From: Fusobacteriaceae bacterium
Lineage (GTDB): Bacteria; Fusobacteriota; Fusobacteriia; Fusobacteriales; Fusobacteriaceae
Direction: 5' to 3'
Assembly (NCBI GenBank): GCA_031272775.1
Contig: JAISTB010000014.1
Location: forward strand, 1-64,000
Length of the DNA: 64,000 nt
Numbering within the stretch: the stretch's first letter is position 1; every line of letters begins with the position of its first letter. The notes under the pieces are model-generated. The model was given only the letters and a program-made list of their open reading frames with translations, made no database searches and was not told where the DNA came from. Shown here piece by piece: positions 3,250 through 11,200 of this stretch. The translations under genes and the position numbers were made by a program.

Positions 3250-3280
3250 AAAAAAAGAAGCGCGGTATCCCGCGCCTCTT
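3250..3280 (-). terminator. Terminator after the sigma-54 activator gene
   Basis: Minus strand: an 11-bp stem with one G-T pair (AAGAGGCGCGG, loop GATA, CCGCGCTTCTT) running into a T-rich tract. It closes the long minus-strand operon and isolates it from the small exported protein gene. Confidence 0.85.
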
Positions 3281-3311
3281 CGGCGTTTCCAAATGTAGCT
3301 TTTTTGCGACA

Positions 3312-4760
3312 TTAAATTACGCTGGCTTTTCCGTATATCCGGGCCTCTTCCGGGTCTGTACGGAAACCGTACTTTCGGATTTTGTTGGCAAGGCCGTATT
3401 TTTTGATCTTTTTGTAAATCACCGTCCGGTGGATTTGCATTTCCCGGGCCGTATCGTTGCAATTCCAGCCGTTGCGCTCAAGGGCAGCCTCCAGGATGTC
3501 CCGCTCGTAGCTTTCGAGCAGCTCGTGCAGGGACCGCCGCTCGTCCAGGACGGGCTTGCTCATGGTGACCATTCGCGAAGGCAGATCCACAAGCCCGATG
3601 TACATATCGTCGGAACTGGCGTAGGCGCTCTTGATGACGTTGTCGAGTTCCCGGATATTGCCGGGCCAGGTGTATTCCTTGAATATTTTCAAAACTTCCT
3701 TGGAAAAGAGCTTTGCCATGCGCATTTCCCGGTTCAACTCGTCGAGGAAATAGTTGGCAATCTCCAAAATATCGTCTTTCCGTTCCCGCAGGGGAACCAT
3801 CTCAATATTGATCACGTTGAGCCGGTAGAAGAGGTCTTCCCGGAACTCGCCGTTTCTGATCATCTGCTGTAAATCCTTCCGGGTCGCCGCGATGATTCTG
3901 ACGTCGATCGGTATGGTCTCAAGGCTCCCGATGGGTTCTATTTTCCGCTCCTGCAATACGCGCAGCAGCTTTGCCTGCATTTTTAGCGGCATGTCGCCGA
4001 TTTCGTCGAGGAAAATCGTCCCGCCGTTGGCGATCAGGAATTTTCCCTTTTTCCCGCCTTTTTTCGCGCCGGTAAAGGCGCCTTCCTCATAGCCGAAAAG
4101 TTCCGATTCAAGCAATTCTTCGGGGATTGAGGCGCAGTCGATGCTGACCATGGGTTTGTTGGAACGGGCGCTGGTGTTGTGAATGGCGTTGGCGAAAACT
4201 TCCTTGCCCGTGCCGGTCTCTCCGGTCAGGAGCACCGAAAAACTGGTGTTGGCGGCTTTGACGCCGTCCACTTTGTTCTTGAGAAACGAGGGGCTTGAGC
4301 CGATAATGTCGTCGAAGGAACTGCGGCCGCGGCCGATTCTCTTGTATTCCTCGCGGTAGTATTCGAGCTGGTCATATTCGGCCATCAGTTTTTTTGCCAC
4401 GTCCAGCGATTGCAGGCGGAATTTTACCTGGGCCACGCCGGCCACGACTTTGCCTTCCTCGTCTTCCACGTAGGAACGACTGACGATGATTTTTCTTTCT
4501 TTGGAGGTCCCGGCCACGTACGTATGGATCACGCCGTATTCCCGAAAATGGTTCTGGACAATATCAATCATTTTGGAATTGGGGATGATGTTGAGTATGG
4601 TTTTCCCGATCACATCCTCCTTTTTCTTGCCAAAGAAATTGCAGTAGGATTCGTTGATATCCGTAACGTTTCCCTTTGTGTCCACTACGATGAATCCGTC
4701 TTCGGACATCTCGATCAGCTGGTCGAATATATGCTTGTATTCTTCCTTGGGAATCAGCAT
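3312..4760 (-). CDS. PAS-sensing sigma-54-dependent transcriptional activator
   Basis: 482 residues with the classic three-part layout. A PAS domain (about 8-115) senses a ligand or redox state. The AAA+ domain (about 150-380) has Walker A GETGTGKE at 180-187, the sigma-54 contact loop GAFTGA at 227-232 and Walker B GGTIFLDEIGD. A Fis-type helix-turn-helix sits near 430-455 (NDTAREMQIHRTVIYKKIKK). There is no receiver domain, so activation is by direct ligand sensing. It is last in the operon that starts with the GntP permease, whose promoter is a sigma-54 type, so it probably activates its own operon in response to the transported acid or its CoA ester. A strong GGAGG precedes the ATG. The ligand is unknown. 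Confidence 0.95.
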   Translation of the reverse strand: MLIPKEEYKHIFDQLIEMSEDGFIVVDTKGNVTDINESYCNFFGKKKEDVIGKTILNIIPNSKMIDIVQNHFREYGVIHTYVAGTSKERKIIVSRSYVEDEEGKVVAGVAQVKFRLQSLDVAKKLMAEYDQLEYYREEYKRIGRGRSSFDDIIGSSPSFLKNKVDGVKAANTSFSVLLTGETGTGKEVFANAIHNTSARSNKPMVSIDCASIPEELLESELFGYEEGAFTGAKKGGKKGKFLIANGGTIFLDEIGDMPLKMQAKLLRVLQERKIEPIGSLETIPIDVRIIAATRKDLQQMIRNGEFREDLFYRLNVINIEMVPLRERKDDILEIANYFLDELNREMRMAKLFSKEVLKIFKEYTWPGNIRELDNVIKSAYASSDDMYIGLVDLPSRMVTMSKPVLDERRSLHELLESYERDILEAALERNGWNCNDTAREMQIHRTVIYKKIKKYGLANKIRKYGFRTDPEEARIYGKASVI

Positions 4761-4832
4761 GGGTCCTCCTTTTTTGAAGCGCCTCAGGAGCGCCCCTTCG
4801 GACGCCCCTGAAACACTTGCTTAGTCAGGATG

Positions 4833-5864
4833 TTACAACTTCCTTTTTTTTGCCGCTTCGGTCATGGCGGGCACGATCTCGTTGAGATCGCCCACAATGC
4901 CGTAATCACAGATTTTGAAGATGGGCGCGCCCGGATCTTTATTGATCGCCACGATGTACTTGGACTCGCTCATGCCTGCCTGATGCTGGATAGCGCCGGA
5001 AATACCGCAGGCGATGTAAACGTTGGGCCGGACTGTCGTCCCGGTCTGTCCCACTTGATGGGACTGATCGATCCAACCGGAGTCGACGGCCGCGCGGGAC
5101 GCGCCTACTTCTCCGCCCAGGGCTTCGGCCAGGTCTTCGATCAGCTTGAAGTTTTCAGGCTTCTTGAGACCTCTGCCGCCCGACACGATGATTTTGGCGC
5201 CCGTGAGGTTCACGAGCTTCTTTCCCGCCGATTTTACGTCGATGACCTTGGCGCGGATGTCCGAGGCGTTCAGTTTCGGTTCATAGACTTCGACGGTCCC
5301 CGTGGGGCTTTCCTGGTATTTGGCCTTTTCCATGACGCCCGGTCTTACGGTCGCCATTTGCGGGCGGTTTTTGGGACAAATGATGGTCGCCATGAGGTTT
5401 CCCCCAAAGGCGGGTCTGGTTTGCAGGAATTTTTTGTCCTCGGGATCGATCGCCAATTTTGTGCAGTCGGCGGTAAGTCCCGTGCCGACCTTGGCCGCCA
5501 CCCGGGGGGCGAAGTCCCTGCCCAGGGAAGTCGCGCCGAACAGCACGATTTCCGGCTTTTTTTCGAGAATGACCCTTGCGGTCGAAAGGGCGTAGCCTTC
5601 CGTGGAAAATTTGTCCAGCAGGGGATCCTTGACGTAGATGACCTTGTCGGCCCCGTAATGGAGCAACTCTTTCACTTTTTCATCGAGGTCCGCGCCCAGG
5701 AGCACAACCGCCAGCTTTTTTCCCAGTTCCGCGGCAAGCTTTTTGCCCTCGCCGAGGAGCTCTATGGTAATGGGGCTGATGATCCCGTCACGCTGTTCCC
5801 CGATGACCCATACGTCATTGTAGTCTTTCAGATTGATGTCTTGATTTACTTTTGCTCTGGCCAT
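4833..5864 (-). CDS. etfA: Electron transfer flavoprotein alpha subunit
   Basis: 343 residues. The N-terminal Etf domain is followed by the conserved C-terminal FAD domain: SGGRGL, GASRAAVDSGWI, QVGQTGTTVRPNVYIACGIS and SESKYIVAINKDPGAPIF. Etf-alpha with Etf-beta carries electrons to or from acyl-CoA dehydrogenases. It lies 12 bases after etfB and downstream of the acyl-CoA dehydrogenase, so its partner is almost certainly that enzyme. Whether this Etf bifurcates electrons, as in butyryl-CoA dehydrogenase complexes, cannot be decided by eye. FixB-type naming would also be valid. Confidence 0.96.
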   Translation of the reverse strand: MARAKVNQDINLKDYNDVWVIGEQRDGIISPITIELLGEGKKLAAELGKKLAVVLLGADLDEKVKELLHYGADKVIYVKDPLLDKFSTEGYALSTARVILEKKPEIVLFGATSLGRDFAPRVAAKVGTGLTADCTKLAIDPEDKKFLQTRPAFGGNLMATIICPKNRPQMATVRPGVMEKAKYQESPTGTVEVYEPKLNASDIRAKVIDVKSAGKKLVNLTGAKIIVSGGRGLKKPENFKLIEDLAEALGGEVGASRAAVDSGWIDQSHQVGQTGTTVRPNVYIACGISGAIQHQAGMSESKYIVAINKDPGAPIFKICDYGIVGDLNEIVPAMTEAAKKRKL

Positions 5865-5876
5865 ATTCTCCCCCTC

Positions 5877-6665
5877 CTATATCACGTTGGCTGCTTTGAG
5901 CTTGTCGAGCAGCTTGTCCACTATTTCGGTCTTGTCGGCCCCTTCGATGATCTCGCTGTGCTTTTCCTTTGTGGGAACAAAGGAGCTGTGTACGTTGGTG
6001 GGGGAGCCTTTGAGTCCGATCTGCGTCGGATCCACAGGAAGGTCTTCCGAGGTCAGCGTCTTCACCAGATCTGTTGTATATGCCTCAAAGACGCGTTTTA
6101 CCCGGGGATAGCGCGGCGTGTTCAAATCCTGGATCGCCGTGATCAGTACGGGTTTCGTCGTCTCGATGATGTAGTCGACGCCTTCGGTTTTTCTGGTAAT
6201 CACATACTTGTCGCCTTTTTCTTCTATGGCCTTGGCGTAGGTCACCTGGGGGATATCGAGGAATTCCGCGATTTCCGGTCCCACTTGGGCCGTATCCCCG
6301 TCGATGGCCTGTCTGCCGCAGAAGATCAGGTCATAGTTGCCGATTTTTTCAATGGCCGCGGCCACAATGGTGGCCGTTGCCCATGTGTCCGAACCGCCGA
6401 AAGCGCGGTCTGTGATCAGGTAAACTTCGTCGGCGCCCATGGCGTAGGCTTCCTTCAGGGCTTCCTTGGCCTGGGGCGGACCCATGCTGATGACGGTGAC
6501 TTTCCCGCCGTTCTTGTCCCGGAGCTGCAGGGCCGCTTCGATGGCGTTCTTGTCGTCGGGATTGATGATGCTGGGCACGCCGTCCCGGATCAAGGTGCCG
6601 GTTTCCTGATTGATTCTGACTTCATTGGTATCGGGTACCTGTTTGATACATACGATAATATTCAT
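5877..6665 (-). CDS. etfB: Electron transfer flavoprotein beta subunit
   Basis: 262 residues starting MNIIVCIKQVPDTNEVRI, the near-invariant start of Etf-beta/FixA proteins, with CGRQAIDGDTAQVGPEIAEF in the middle, the signature segment of the family. It forms the heterodimer with EtfA encoded 12 bases downstream, and lies 13 bases after the acyl-CoA dehydrogenase gene. The spacing and fixed order (dehydrogenase, beta, alpha) point to co-translation as one redox module in the cytoplasm. Confidence 0.97.
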   Translation of the reverse strand: MNIIVCIKQVPDTNEVRINQETGTLIRDGVPSIINPDDKNAIEAALQLRDKNGGKVTVISMGPPQAKEALKEAYAMGADEVYLITDRAFGGSDTWATATIVAAAIEKIGNYDLIFCGRQAIDGDTAQVGPEIAEFLDIPQVTYAKAIEEKGDKYVITRKTEGVDYIIETTKPVLITAIQDLNTPRYPRVKRVFEAYTTDLVKTLTSEDLPVDPTQIGLKGSPTNVHSSFVPTKEKHSEIIEGADKTEIVDKLLDKLKAANVI

Positions 6666-7846: not shown

Positions 7847-9058
7847 CTACTTGTTGACTACGATGGTCCCCTTCTCCAGATATGCTTTGATCGTTTCGTC
7901 GCTGTAGCCGATTTCCTTCAGGATTTCTTCGGAATCTTCGCCGATCAGCGGAGCGTCTTTAATCGGATTCAGTTCGATGTTCTCAAACTTGATGGGCGTC
8001 AGGGCAAGCTTGGTCACAGTGCCGTTCCGGTGCTTAAAATCGGCCACGTAGTTGTTTTCCAGCGCCTGGGCGTCCTTCCAGACGTCGGCGAAGTGCTGGA
8101 TCCGTTCGTTGGCGATGTCGGCCTTTGTCAGCATTTCCACAACTTCGTCCTGGGTGTATTTTACGAACTCCTGATCGAGGATGGCGATCAGCTCGGGCGC
8201 GTTTTTCTTGGCTTCGAGGGTCGTCAGGAACTTGTCGTTCTTGAGATCGGGCCGGCCCAGCAGGTCGCAGAGTACCGGGAAATACCGTTCATGTTCGAGA
8301 ATCGATACGAATACCCACTGTCCGTCTTTACACTTGAAGGAATTGATGACTGCGGATGTGGCGTTCTTTCTTGTCTTGGGATAAACGTCCTCGTACTGGG
8401 TCGTTGCCATTTCCGTACTGGCGCTCCAGATGGCCTGGGATAAGAGCGATACCATTACTTTCTGACCCTTTCCGGTCTTCTGCTGATAGTAGAGGGCCGC
8501 GCAGATACCGCCCGAAAGGCTGCACGCCGTTGTGGCGTCGCCGAATCCGATGGGCGGATTGACCGGGGACGTGTCTTTTTCCACCAAGTCGGCCATGGCG
8601 CCGCTTCTGGCCCAGAAGGCCACGGTGTCAAAACCGGCGTTGTCCTTGGCGGGACCGTAGTCGCCGAAACCGTTGATCTGTGCCCAGATCAGGTGCGGAT
8701 GCTTTTCGTGCAAGGTCTCATAGTCGAGACCGAGCCGCTTCAAAGCGCCCGTCCGGTAACTGGAAACGAAAACATTGGCTGTCTTCAGCAGATCGTCCAT
8801 GATTTTCAGCCCTTCGGGATCCTTCAGATTGATACAGAGCCCTCTTTTGTTGGCATTGTAGGTCGTGTAAACGGGATTGATCTCCCGGTCGATGACGGGG
8901 GCCGTCATGTTGGCGCCCAGTTTTCTGCCGGGATCGCCGAAGCTCGGCTCCACTTTGATAACGTCCGCGCCCCAGTCGCCAAGGATTCTGGCGGTACCGG
9001 GCCCGGCGACGAAGTAGGTAAGGTCTACTACTTTTACGCCTTCCAAAGGTTTATTCAT
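7847..9058 (-). CDS. Class III (CaiB/BaiF) CoA-transferase
   Basis: 403 residues from the ATG at 9058, which has GGAGG 6 bases upstream; an earlier in-frame ATG would only add 11 unlike residues. The start EGVKVVDLTYFVAGPG and GADVIKVEP are typical of the family. The nucleophilic Asp is expected in FGDATTACS (Asp174), matching the formyl-CoA transferase Asp. Members move CoA between carboxylic acids, as in CaiB, FldA and HadA. Placed between a carboxylate permease and an acyl-CoA dehydrogenase, it most likely charges the imported acid using the product acyl-CoA as donor, which makes activation free of ATP cost. Confidence 0.94.
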   Translation of the reverse strand: MNKPLEGVKVVDLTYFVAGPGTARILGDWGADVIKVEPSFGDPGRKLGANMTAPVIDREINPVYTTYNANKRGLCINLKDPEGLKIMDDLLKTANVFVSSYRTGALKRLGLDYETLHEKHPHLIWAQINGFGDYGPAKDNAGFDTVAFWARSGAMADLVEKDTSPVNPPIGFGDATTACSLSGGICAALYYQQKTGKGQKVMVSLLSQAIWSASTEMATTQYEDVYPKTRKNATSAVINSFKCKDGQWVFVSILEHERYFPVLCDLLGRPDLKNDKFLTTLEAKKNAPELIAILDQEFVKYTQDEVVEMLTKADIANERIQHFADVWKDAQALENNYVADFKHRNGTVTKLALTPIKFENIELNPIKDAPLIGEDSEEILKEIGYSDETIKAYLEKGTIVVNK

Positions 9059-9164
9059 ATTATACCTCCATTTGTCGCTTTTTGGCAACATTTATTTATT
9101 TTGTTTTTTTGTCCACGACGGAAACCCTGATTCTCCGGGCTTCAGGTCGTACATTCCGGAAAAA

Positions 9165-10532
9165 TTACGGCCAGTTCGGGAACAACGAGAACAGAATTAC
9201 GCAGATAACCGATCCGACGGCGGGCATAAATACCGTGAGCCAGAAGACCAGTCCGTAAGCGTCTTTATGGGTTTCGTTACAAATACCGTTCGTAACCGTT
9301 ACGATATAACCGTTGTGCGGGAGCGAATCCAGAGCCGCGGAAGAAATCGACATGGTTCTCGAAATGGCTTCGGCGGAAACGCCCTTGGCAAGATATACGG
9401 GACCCAGTAAGGGAGCGGCGATGCCCAAAGCGCCCGAAGCGGATCCGCAGATACCGGCGATGACCGTCGTACCAACCGCTACGCCTACGAGGGGCGGACC
9501 GGGGATGCTGGTCATGGCGTCACGTACTACGGGGAAAGCGGCCGACATGGATACGAGGGTACCGAAGCCCACGACGGCGCAGGTGTTACAGATGGAGCCG
9601 ATGGCGGCCTTGCAGCCGTCGCCCACATGGCCCAGAACTTTGTGATTGTCCTGATATTTGTTGAGCAGGAGCCATGTCAGGATCGTGCCGAACAGAACGC
9701 CGGTTTCGGGCTGAACGATGTTCTTTCCGCCGACTTTCAAGTTGATGATGAAGATCGTTACAACGAGGGGAACCAGAGACAGAATGCCGCTGGGCAGTTC
9801 TCCCTCCACCTCAAATTTGTCAATGTCTTTGGCGACAAAGTGCTCGCCGTTCTTTCTTGCCTTGTCAATGTACCAGAACATGAACAGCGCGCCCAGAACG
9901 AAGATGGCGCCGCAGGAAAGGAATCCCACGATGGTTCCGGCCATGAGTGTTACGGGTCTTCCGGCCAGTTGCGTCATAACCGTCGACGGCGTAAAGTTGT
10001 GAATCTGGGGAGCGCCGGGCGCTACCATGGCGAAGGTCGAACATCCGAACGTCAACGCGCCGGGGAGAAATCTTCGCGGCAGATCCGCTTCACGGAAGAT
10101 TTCCAGGGCAATGGGGAACACCGCGAAACTTACTACGAATACGGTGACGCCGCCATAGGCCAGAACCGCGCAGGAGAGCGGTACGGAAATCAGGGCGTAT
10201 TTTTTACCGAAGATCTTGATGATCAACTTGGCGATGGCCTTCGCACCGTTGGTGATTTCCATGAGTTTCCCCATAAGGGTTCCCGTGAGAAAGATCAGGT
10301 AATTGGCGCTGAAGAATCCGACAAACCCGCGGATGAAGAACGTCTTATAGGCGTTAAACATCGTCAGGGGACCGACTTTTTCGTCAGCCACAAAGCCCAG
10401 CGTCGTAATGGCGACGATGGCGCAGCTGATAAAGACCGTGATGAAGATGTTGACTCCCTTCATGATCATCCAGATCAGCAGGCTGAGTGCTACGATGATA
10501 CCGATGAGACTGATAAGTTGTTGCGTATTCAT
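9165..10532 (-). CDS. GntP family carboxylate permease
   Basis: 455 residues, about 12 hydrophobic helices, beginning QLISLIGIIVALSLLIWMIM. Motifs typical of GntP permeases are visible: YGGVTVFVVSFAVFPIA, GCSTFAMVAPGAPQIHN, and near the end ICGSASGALGIAA and SSAALDSLPHNG, the last as in D-beta-hydroxybutyrate-type permeases. GntP members are H+ symporters for gluconate, hydroxybutyrate or other organic acids. It is the first gene of the sigma-54 operon and probably imports the acid that the CoA-transferase activates. GGAGGA lies 4-9 bases before the ATG. Confidence 0.93.
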   Translation of the reverse strand: MNTQQLISLIGIIVALSLLIWMIMKGVNIFITVFISCAIVAITTLGFVADEKVGPLTMFNAYKTFFIRGFVGFFSANYLIFLTGTLMGKLMEITNGAKAIAKLIIKIFGKKYALISVPLSCAVLAYGGVTVFVVSFAVFPIALEIFREADLPRRFLPGALTFGCSTFAMVAPGAPQIHNFTPSTVMTQLAGRPVTLMAGTIVGFLSCGAIFVLGALFMFWYIDKARKNGEHFVAKDIDKFEVEGELPSGILSLVPLVVTIFIINLKVGGKNIVQPETGVLFGTILTWLLLNKYQDNHKVLGHVGDGCKAAIGSICNTCAVVGFGTLVSMSAAFPVVRDAMTSIPGPPLVGVAVGTTVIAGICGSASGALGIAAPLLGPVYLAKGVSAEAISRTMSISSAALDSLPHNGYIVTVTNGICNETHKDAYGLVFWLTVFMPAVGSVICVILFSLFPNWP

Positions 10533-10617
10533 GCTATCCTCCTATATTATTTTGTGTGATGCCGTTTTTGTACTTCGGATGCCATGGCATGACAAAAATG
10601 TTTCTCCAGTTATACTA

Positions 10618-10634
10618 AGCAATTATTATGCCAA
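10618..10634 (-). promoter_or_regulatory. Sigma-54 (-24/-12) promoter of the GntP-CoA-transferase-Etf operon
   Basis: Minus-strand TTGGCATAATAATTGCT. The GG and GC doublets are separated by exactly 10 bases, as in the TGGCAC-N5-TTGCW consensus; only the last base of the -24 box differs. A start about 12 bases downstream gives a leader near 75 bases before the GntP ATG. The operon ends with a sigma-54 activator gene, which supports the call. Confidence 0.85.
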
Positions 10635-10690: not shown

Positions 10691-10745
10691 ATTTCGACAA
10701 CATTATGACATTAAAAATCAGGAATTGGACAAAACGGAAACCAGT

Positions 10746-10795
10746 TCAAAAAACAAAAAGTAGTCATCCGGAGACAAAAGTCTCAGAATGACTAC
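10746..10795 (-). terminator. Terminator after rpmA
   Basis: Minus strand: GTAGTCAT paired with ATGACTAC, inner GAGAC/GTCTC with a TTTT loop, followed by TTTTTGTTTTTTG. It ends the rplU-prp-rpmA transcript and insulates the sigma-54 promoter. Confidence 0.88.
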
Positions 10796-10897
10796 ATTGC
10801 TATCGAGGGTCCTCAGCCCCTTATAATCACGAAAGGACGCCGTTTTCCGACGCCCTTTTGCCTTTCAGATCCTGTTCCCTTTTCCCGGAAGGGGTTT

Positions 10898-11200
10898 TTA
10901 TTCGCCGACAACAGGTTTTTCCGCGTAGACGGAAACCTGTTTTTTGTTCCGTTTTCTGTAGCGTTCAAACTTCACAAAGCCGTCGATCAGCGAAAACAGC
11001 GTGTGATCCCTGCCGATCCCCATATTTTCCCCGGCGTGGAAGACCGTGCCGCGCTGGCGTACAATGACGTTTCCGGCCTTTACGACTTCGCCGTCATATT
11101 TTTTGACGCCCAGATATTTGGGGTTGGAATCCCGTCCGTTCTTGACGGAGCCTTGCCCTTTCTTATGGGCGAATTTCTGTATATTGAACGTGAATAACAT
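10898..11200 (-). CDS. rpmA: 50S ribosomal protein L27 with Prp-cleaved N-terminal extension
   Basis: 100 residues. The body [20 protein letters not shown] and [20 protein letters not shown] is unmistakable L27. It is preceded by [10 protein letters not shown], an extension that in Firmicutes and relatives is cut after Phe by the Prp protease before the protein joins the 50S subunit; the mature N-terminus would be AHKKG. The C-terminus is slightly longer than E. coli L27 ([15 protein letters not shown]). GGAGG lies inside the 3' end of prp. Last gene of the rplU-prp-rpmA operon. Confidence 0.98.

What the first reader, a model, noticed from the sequence alone, without database searches (positions are those of the whole stretch)
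10618..10634. Sigma-54 promoter drives an operon that encodes its own activator at the far end
TTGGCATAATAATTGCT has the exact GG-N10-GC geometry of a -24/-12 promoter. Six genes downstream on the same strand, the last gene is a PAS/AAA+/Fis activator with an intact GAFTGA loop. This is a closed circuit: the imported acid or its CoA ester could be the PAS ligand.
Basis: partly seen in the sequence, partly recalled or inferred. Interest (0 to 1): 0.62.

Follow-up and report, generated by a model that had tools for sequence, protein, structure and literature searches.

The report
Sigma-54 acid-reduction operon with own activator
A gut-type Fusobacteriaceae bacterium switches on genes that import and reduce a short organic acid through a genuine sigma-54 promoter, using an activator encoded at the end of the same gene row; this is a new relative of a regulatory unit already described in Clostridioides difficile, not a new kind of system.

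Summary
TTGGCATAATAATTGCT lies on the minus strand (10634->10618), 86 bases upstream of gntP, and equals the published Clostridiales sigma-54 consensus TTGGCATN5TTGCT. It is the only such site in the window (shuffles: 0.017). The genome has one complete rpoN and five GA/SFTGA-type activators, each with a -24/-12 site nearby.

Orthologous operons in 12 further genomes of Fusobacteriota and Bacillota all carry a matching site upstream. One genome holds the exact promoter published for C. difficile CD0800, an operon whose transcript start was mapped and which is assigned to activator YctR (CD0806). The window's activator is 61% identical to that protein and groups with it.

I also found the likely enhancer: two 16-bp palindromes (GTMTC-N6-GAKAC) 20 bp apart, recurring upstream of most of these promoters. 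In the window they form a hairpin followed by a T run, so they may also terminate the upstream rpmA operon.

No internal sigma-70 promoter or U-tailed terminator separates etfA from the activator gene, so co-transcription is likely here. It is not conserved: in relatives the activator is often divergent or convergent, or has its own promoter. The PAS ligand is unknown. Verdict: a new member of a known kind.

The parts
10618..10634 (-). -24/-12 (sigma-54) promoter TTGGCATAATAATTGCT; transcript start predicted near 10607 (inference)
   Evidence: conserved in 12 further genomes
10780..10795 (-). UAS site 1 GTAGTCATTCTGAGAC (candidate activator-binding palindrome)
   Evidence: leave-one-out motif test, pair p=0.010; hand-listed PWM
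10760..10775 (-). UAS site 2 GTCTCCGGATGACTAC, 20 bp from site 1
10748..10796 (-). hairpin formed by the two UAS sites plus T tract: probable intrinsic terminator of rplU-ysxB-rpmA overlapping the enhancer
   Evidence: RNA fold -25.2 kcal/mol for 10740-10805, z -5.4; 9 of 10 following bases are T
9165..10532 (-). gntP-type permease, 455 aa (Pfam GntP_permease, 26.3 bits against cut-off 22.5)
7847..9091 (-). class III (CaiB-type) CoA-transferase, 414 aa
   Evidence: PF02515, 318.7 bits
6679..7821 (-). acyl-CoA dehydrogenase, probably acting as a short-chain enoyl-CoA reductase; over the NCBIfam cut-off for acryloyl-CoA reductase AcrC (686.9 against 640)
5877..6665 (-). EtfB, electron transfer flavoprotein subunit
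4833..5864 (-). EtfA, electron transfer flavoprotein subunit
4777..4818 (-). 19-bp hairpin in the etfA-activator gap, no U tract; similar hairpins in the same gap of both other genus members
3312..4760 (-). sigma-54 activator PAS-AAA+-Fis HTH, 482 aa, GAFTGA intact; YctR orthologue
3254..3281 (-). intrinsic terminator after the activator gene (12-pair stem, T run overlapping the stem end)

Best explanation
This is a one-component, sigma-54-dependent catabolic operon, the fusobacterial counterpart of the C. difficile CD0800-CD0805/YctR unit. RpoN-polymerase sits closed at 10634-10618. The PAS-AAA+-Fis activator binds the paired palindromes at 10795-10760, about 140-160 bp upstream, and when its PAS domain is in the inducing state it loops over and opens the promoter. 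The operon makes a GntP-type permease, a class III CoA-transferase and an acyl-CoA dehydrogenase with EtfBA: import a short unsaturated (or 3-hydroxy) acid, pass CoA to it, reduce the enoyl-CoA, and recycle CoA from the product. The activator gene is transcribed at the operon's end, probably at lower yield because of the hairpin before it, so induction raises its own level. Shown by sequence: promoter, rpoN, operon order, UAS pair, orthology. Inferred: binding, looping, induction, co-transcription, substrate.
For: Motif identical to the Clostridiales consensus. Complete RpoN. A -24/-12 site directly upstream of the operon in the window, L095 (two operons), L091, L092, L093, L094, L018, L019, L110, L111, L112, L114 and L123. 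Against the sister genome G050 the gntP-proximal promoter DNA has diverged heavily, but the -24/-12 site, the UAS hairpin and the ribosome-binding site are kept. L121/L123 hold the exact published CD0800 promoter, an operon tied by transcript-start mapping to a -24/-12 promoter and to CD0806/YctR. The activator is 61% identical to that protein and in a clade with it (99/99). Palindrome motif: score 81.8 against a shuffle maximum of 51.8; best spacing is 19-21 bp in 11 of 12 promoters when each is left out of training; L123 and L114, outside the training set, show the pair at 20 bp.
Against: No expression or binding data for this organism. In C. difficile the operon is marked NR for the sigL mutant, which may mean only that the inducer was absent. 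The window's UAS is a divergent version (each site has one canonical half), with weaker scores than in most relatives. The activator's position and orientation vary, so the autoregulatory loop is not a conserved property. The substrate is not determined; the crotonase that heads most related operons is missing here, although four crotonase-family matches lie elsewhere in the genome, one with an internal stop codon.
Confidence: 0.85

Rival explanations
1. The promoter and activator pairing are right, but the activator gene is expressed from its own weak promoter inside etfA or in the gap, and the sigma-54 transcript stops before it, so there is no closed circuit.
For: Relatives L019 and L108 have a terminator and a good sigma-70 promoter in this gap; in L018, L094 and L107 the activator is divergent with sigma-70-like promoters. 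The gap holds a strong hairpin.
Against: The window's hairpin has no U tract, and no sigma-70-like site was found on this strand from 6000 down to the activator's start codon (its one nearby hit lies inside the coding sequence).
Confidence: 0.25
2. The -24/-12 match is a chance sequence and the operon is read from a sigma-70 promoter or by read-through from rplU-ysxB-rpmA.
For: Composition alone predicts a few perfect TGGCAYN5TTGCW matches in a 2.1-Mb genome, about as many as found (the expectation is my own arithmetic).
Against: Conservation upstream of orthologous operons in 12 other genomes, exact Clostridiales consensus, and a UAS pair at the expected distance. No sigma-70-like site on the minus strand between rpmA and gntP. 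A terminator-like hairpin lies between rpmA and the promoter.
Confidence: 0.03
3. The promoter is sigma-54-dependent but a different activator of the genome drives it.
For: The genome has four other GA/SFTGA-type activators.
Against: Each of those has its own nearby -24/-12 site; the window's activator travels with this operon across two phyla, and the UAS motif recurs with it.
Confidence: 0.05

Closest known systems
YctR regulon of Clostridioides difficile: crt1(CD0800)-CD0801-CoA transferase-bcd-etfBA2 with activator CD0806/YctR (PMC6615313 Table 1; PMC7438776 Table 4)
   Same: Same permease, class III CoA-transferase, acyl-CoA dehydrogenase and EtfBA in the same order; activator at the far end on the same strand; -24/-12 promoter; paired GTMTC/GAKAC palindromes.
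   Different: No crotonase at the head of the operon; Fusobacteriaceae host; the UAS is a divergent pair in a terminator-like hairpin; no U-tailed terminator before the activator gene.
XcgR regulon cotY-gntT-bcd-etfAB of Clostridium/Geosporobacter (PMC6615313)
   Same: Sigma-54 activator controlling GntT permease, CoA-transferase, Bcd and EtfAB.
   Different: Its UAS is of the TGT-N10-12-ACA type; here the motif is GTMTC-N6-GAKAC. Direct protein comparison not done.
LeuR/hadAIBC-acdB-etfBA leucine-reduction operon of C. difficile
   Same: Sigma-54 control of a CoA-transferase / acyl-CoA dehydrogenase / Etf reductive branch.
   Different: Has a radical 2-hydroxyacyl-CoA dehydratase; the window operon has a permease and no dehydratase.
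PA2005/RpoN control of (R)-3-hydroxybutyrate use in Pseudomonas aeruginosa (cited in PMC13390443; the paper itself is not held)
   Same: A sigma-54 activator controls 3-hydroxyacid catabolism; a GntP-type permease in that unit is recalled from memory, not checked.
   Different: Aerobic dehydrogenase route instead of enoyl-CoA reduction.

Membership tests
sigma-54-dependent promoter | GG and GC elements 10 bases apart within a TGGCAY-N5-TTGCW context | tested here: met
sigma-54-dependent promoter | complete rpoN in the genome (AID, core-binding and DNA-binding domains) | tested here: met
sigma-54-dependent promoter | enhancer sites for an activator upstream of the promoter | tested here: met
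   (motif recurrence and spacing; binding itself not shown)
sigma-54-dependent promoter | transcript start about 12 bases downstream, lost without RpoN | not testable with these tools
   no expression data; a start was mapped at the homologous C. difficile promoter
sigma-54 activators (bEBP), PAS-AAA+-Fis type | AAA+ sigma-54 interaction domain with GAFTGA and Walker A/B, Fis-type HTH, PAS sensor | tested here: met
   (PF00158 235.7 bits, PF02954 42, PF00989 35.8)
YctR orthologous group and regulon | activator orthologous to CD0806/YctR | tested here: met
YctR orthologous group and regulon | target operon crt-gntT-caiB-bcd-etfAB | tested here: inconclusive
   gntT-caiB-bcd-etfBA present in order, crt absent from the operon
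YctR orthologous group and regulon | the group's UAS motif as drawn in PMC6615313 Fig. 3 | tested here: inconclusive
   the motif derived here is present upstream of the C. difficile operon, but the published logo could not be read
acryloyl-CoA reductase AcrC (NF042972) | score over the curated cut-off | tested here: met
   686.9 against 640 bits; activity not tested, and EtfA/EtfB fall below the AcrA/AcrB cut-offs

The most novel reading that the evidence does not exclude
The activator's paired enhancer is at the same time the intrinsic terminator of the upstream ribosomal-protein operon, and imperfect termination there gives the basal transcript that primes a self-activating sigma-54 operon whose activator gene sits last, behind a damping hairpin.
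Probability: 0.2. Interest if true: 0.5.

Novelty: new member of a known kind. Interest (0 to 1): 0.3.

Why it matters
It extends the YctR-type sigma-54 unit, described in Clostridioides, to Fusobacteriaceae, a family in which sigma-54 is little described (F. nucleatum lacks it, PMC3162934, but 44 of 61 genomes searched here have a match over the family cut-off). It supplies a testable binding motif for this activator group across two phyla, and a simple ligand question: the PAS domain is conserved with the operon, so one inducer assay could settle several genera at once.

Tried and rejected
Counting -24/-12 matches genome-wide as evidence: rejected, since chance predicts similar numbers; position and conservation carry the case. 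A 10-bp motif search was not distinguishable from shuffles; only longer motifs, 16 bp best, separated clearly. AlphaFold model of the activator from seven sequences: mean pLDDT 53.6, too poor to judge a PAS pocket, so no fold search was made. PDB search with the PAS domain: nearest are CitA and WalK PAS domains at weak E-values, no ligand clue. L107 and L109: weaker sites (GTGC instead of TTGC) between crotonase and gntP, and no convincing UAS pair; not counted as support. L108: contig begins inside the crotonase gene, promoter not visible. L110: no UAS pair found. Supplementary tables of PMC6615313 could not be read.

Full report
Observation. The 17-mer TTGGCATAATAATTGCT is present on the minus strand at 10634->10618. 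The genes it would drive are all on that strand: gntP 10532-9165, class III CoA-transferase 9091-7847, acyl-CoA dehydrogenase 7821-6679, etfB 6665-5877, etfA 5864-4833, activator 4760-3312. The nearest genes upstream, rpmA, ysxB and rplU, lie on the same strand and are separated by a terminator-like hairpin. In the 64-kb window the site is the only one at its score or better; shuffles give 0.05 per window, and 0.02% of shuffles of the gntP-rpmA gap contain one. The sequence equals the consensus TTGGCATNNNNNTTGCT used for 57 Clostridiales genomes (PMC6615313).

Sigma-54 machinery. The window's genome (2.09 Mb, 41 contigs) has one RpoN with all three sigma-54 domains. The sigma-54 interaction domain search gives seven strong matches. 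Five have an intact GAFTGA or GSFTGA loop, and each of these has a -24/-12 site nearby: perfect at C14, C15 (two) and C17 (two), one mismatch at C9 (TGGCAGGATTTTTGCT) and C27 (TGGTATAAAAATTGCT). The other two (L088, GAFQGA; L089, GAFKEV) lack the loop and showed no convincing adjacent site. All five perfect genome-wide sites lie within about 6 kb of an activator gene. Number alone is not evidence: composition predicts a similar count. In the family, 44 of 61 genomes have a sigma-54 match over the cut-off, although F. nucleatum lacks it (PMC3162934).

Conservation. Close relatives of the permease were found in Fusobacteriaceae, Peptoniphilus, other Firmicutes and Synergistaceae. Wherever the permease-CoA-transferase-dehydrogenase-Etf operon occurs with enough upstream DNA, a -24/-12 site lies in front of its first gene: L095 (two operons), L091, L092, L093, L094, L018, L019, L110, L111, L112, L114 and L123. 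The exceptions are G251 and G250 (L107, L109), where the site is weak and lies between crotonase and gntP; they are not counted. Between the window and the sister genome G050 the first 330 bases of gntP are 97% identical, while the promoter region aligns poorly except for the UAS hairpin, the -24/-12 site and the ribosome-binding site.

Link to a mapped promoter. Eight genomes of one family carry the operon with 62-63% identical permeases. One of them, G685, contains exactly TTGGCATAGTACTTGCTAT, published as the promoter of C. difficile CD0800 and identified through 5'-end RNA-seq and sequence (PMC7438776 Table 4), in an operon crotonase-permease-CoA transferase-bcd-etfBA assigned to CD0806/YctR. 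That the genome is C. difficile is my inference from this match. Its activator is 61% identical to the window's over about 455 residues, and the two fall in one clade (99/99) that excludes the window genome's other activators. The same unit was predicted by comparative genomics as the YctR regulon (PMC6615313). In the sigL mutant this operon is marked NR; I read this as no effect detected under those conditions.

Enhancer. Motif discovery on the upstream regions gave a palindrome GTMTC-N6-GAKAC: score 81.8 against a maximum of 51.8 in 20 shuffled sets. With each promoter left out of training in turn, the best pair spacing out of 16-40 bp was 19-21 bp in 11 of 12 promoters; the pair was significant (p 0.005-0.025 against shuffles) in those 11 and absent in L110. 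The C. difficile operon and its neighbour L114, outside the training set, show ATATCAAAAATGAGAC-TGCA-TTCTCAAAAATGAGAC (one base different in L114's first site and its spacer), 20 bp apart, and a third site. The palindromic profile was built from sites I listed by hand; the automatic leave-one-out result is the unbiased one. In the window the pair is GTAGTCATTCTGAGAC-TTTT-GTCTCCGGATGACTAC (10795-10760), 142-162 bp upstream of the promoter (p=0.010). As RNA it folds at -22.5 kcal/mol and is followed by nine T in ten bases; G050 and L019 show the same overlap of paired sites and terminator-like hairpin.

Is the circuit closed? The 72-bp gap before the activator gene holds a 19-bp hairpin with no U tract, and similar hairpins occur in the same gap of both other genus members. 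No sigma-70-like site was found on this strand between 6000 and the activator start. A terminator follows the activator gene. Co-transcription is therefore likely here. In relatives the activator is co-directional at the end (L091, L096, L019, L108, L110, L111, L114, L123), divergent at the head (L018, L094, L107, L109) or convergent at the tail (L092, L093), and L019 and L108 have a terminator and a sigma-70-like promoter before it. Linkage is conserved; self-activation through the operon is not.

Function. The dehydrogenase passes the curated cut-off for acryloyl-CoA reductase, and its closest solved relatives are acyl-CoA and butyryl-CoA dehydrogenases. In most relatives a crotonase heads the operon, and in some a class I CoA-transferase replaces the class III enzyme. 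Hence the likely substrate is a short 2-enoate, or a 3-hydroxyacid where a crotonase is available; four crotonase-family matches lie elsewhere in this genome, one with an internal stop. The PAS domain is 58% identical to that of YctR and 25-35% to those of the genome's other activators, which fits a ligand shared across the group. The ligand itself cannot be told from these data; the structure prediction was too poor to help.

Verdict. A real sigma-54 promoter and its cognate activator, correctly read from raw sequence. It is a fusobacterial member of a described regulatory unit, with the enhancer now proposed and the autoregulatory loop likely but lineage-specific.

Noticed in passing
window 10748-10796; L095 ~11002-11050; L019 ~8861-8905: The paired activator sites form a terminator-like hairpin with a T tract at the end of the upstream gene; enhancer and terminator seem to share the same DNA in at least three genomes.
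   Followed up: partly
window 7847-10532 against L095/L096 (G050): gntP (97% DNA over the first 330 bp) and the CoA-transferase (99% aa) are nearly identical between two species whose dehydrogenase, Etf and activator are 86-92% identical and whose promoters have diverged: a sign of recent recombination of that block.
   Followed up: no
L095:1975-10976: G050 carries a second, paralogous operon (CoA-transferase, dehydrogenase, EtfBA, a different GntP permease, second CoA-transferase, activator) with its own -24/-12 site, directly upstream of the gntP promoter.
   Followed up: partly
L087 (G000:C27:1-12000): Another activator of this genome sits before an AtuA / HMG-CoA-reductase operon with a crotonase and a class III CoA-transferase, behind a -24/-12-like site TGGTATAAAAATTGCT; the substrate could be a branched hydroxyacid.
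   Followed up: no
L084 (G000:C15:10001-30000): An activator next to a HpaB-family (4-hydroxybutyryl-CoA dehydratase-like) gene and an acetyl-CoA hydrolase/transferase, with two perfect -24/-12 sites.
   Followed up: no
L088 (G000:C20) and L089 (G000:C33): Two proteins with a sigma-54-interaction-type AAA+ domain but a broken GAFTGA loop (GAFQGA, GAFKEV), so probably not sigma-54 activators.
   Followed up: no
window 4777-4818: Strong hairpin between etfA and the activator gene, with similar hairpins in the two other genus members; possible processing or damping element.
   Followed up: partly
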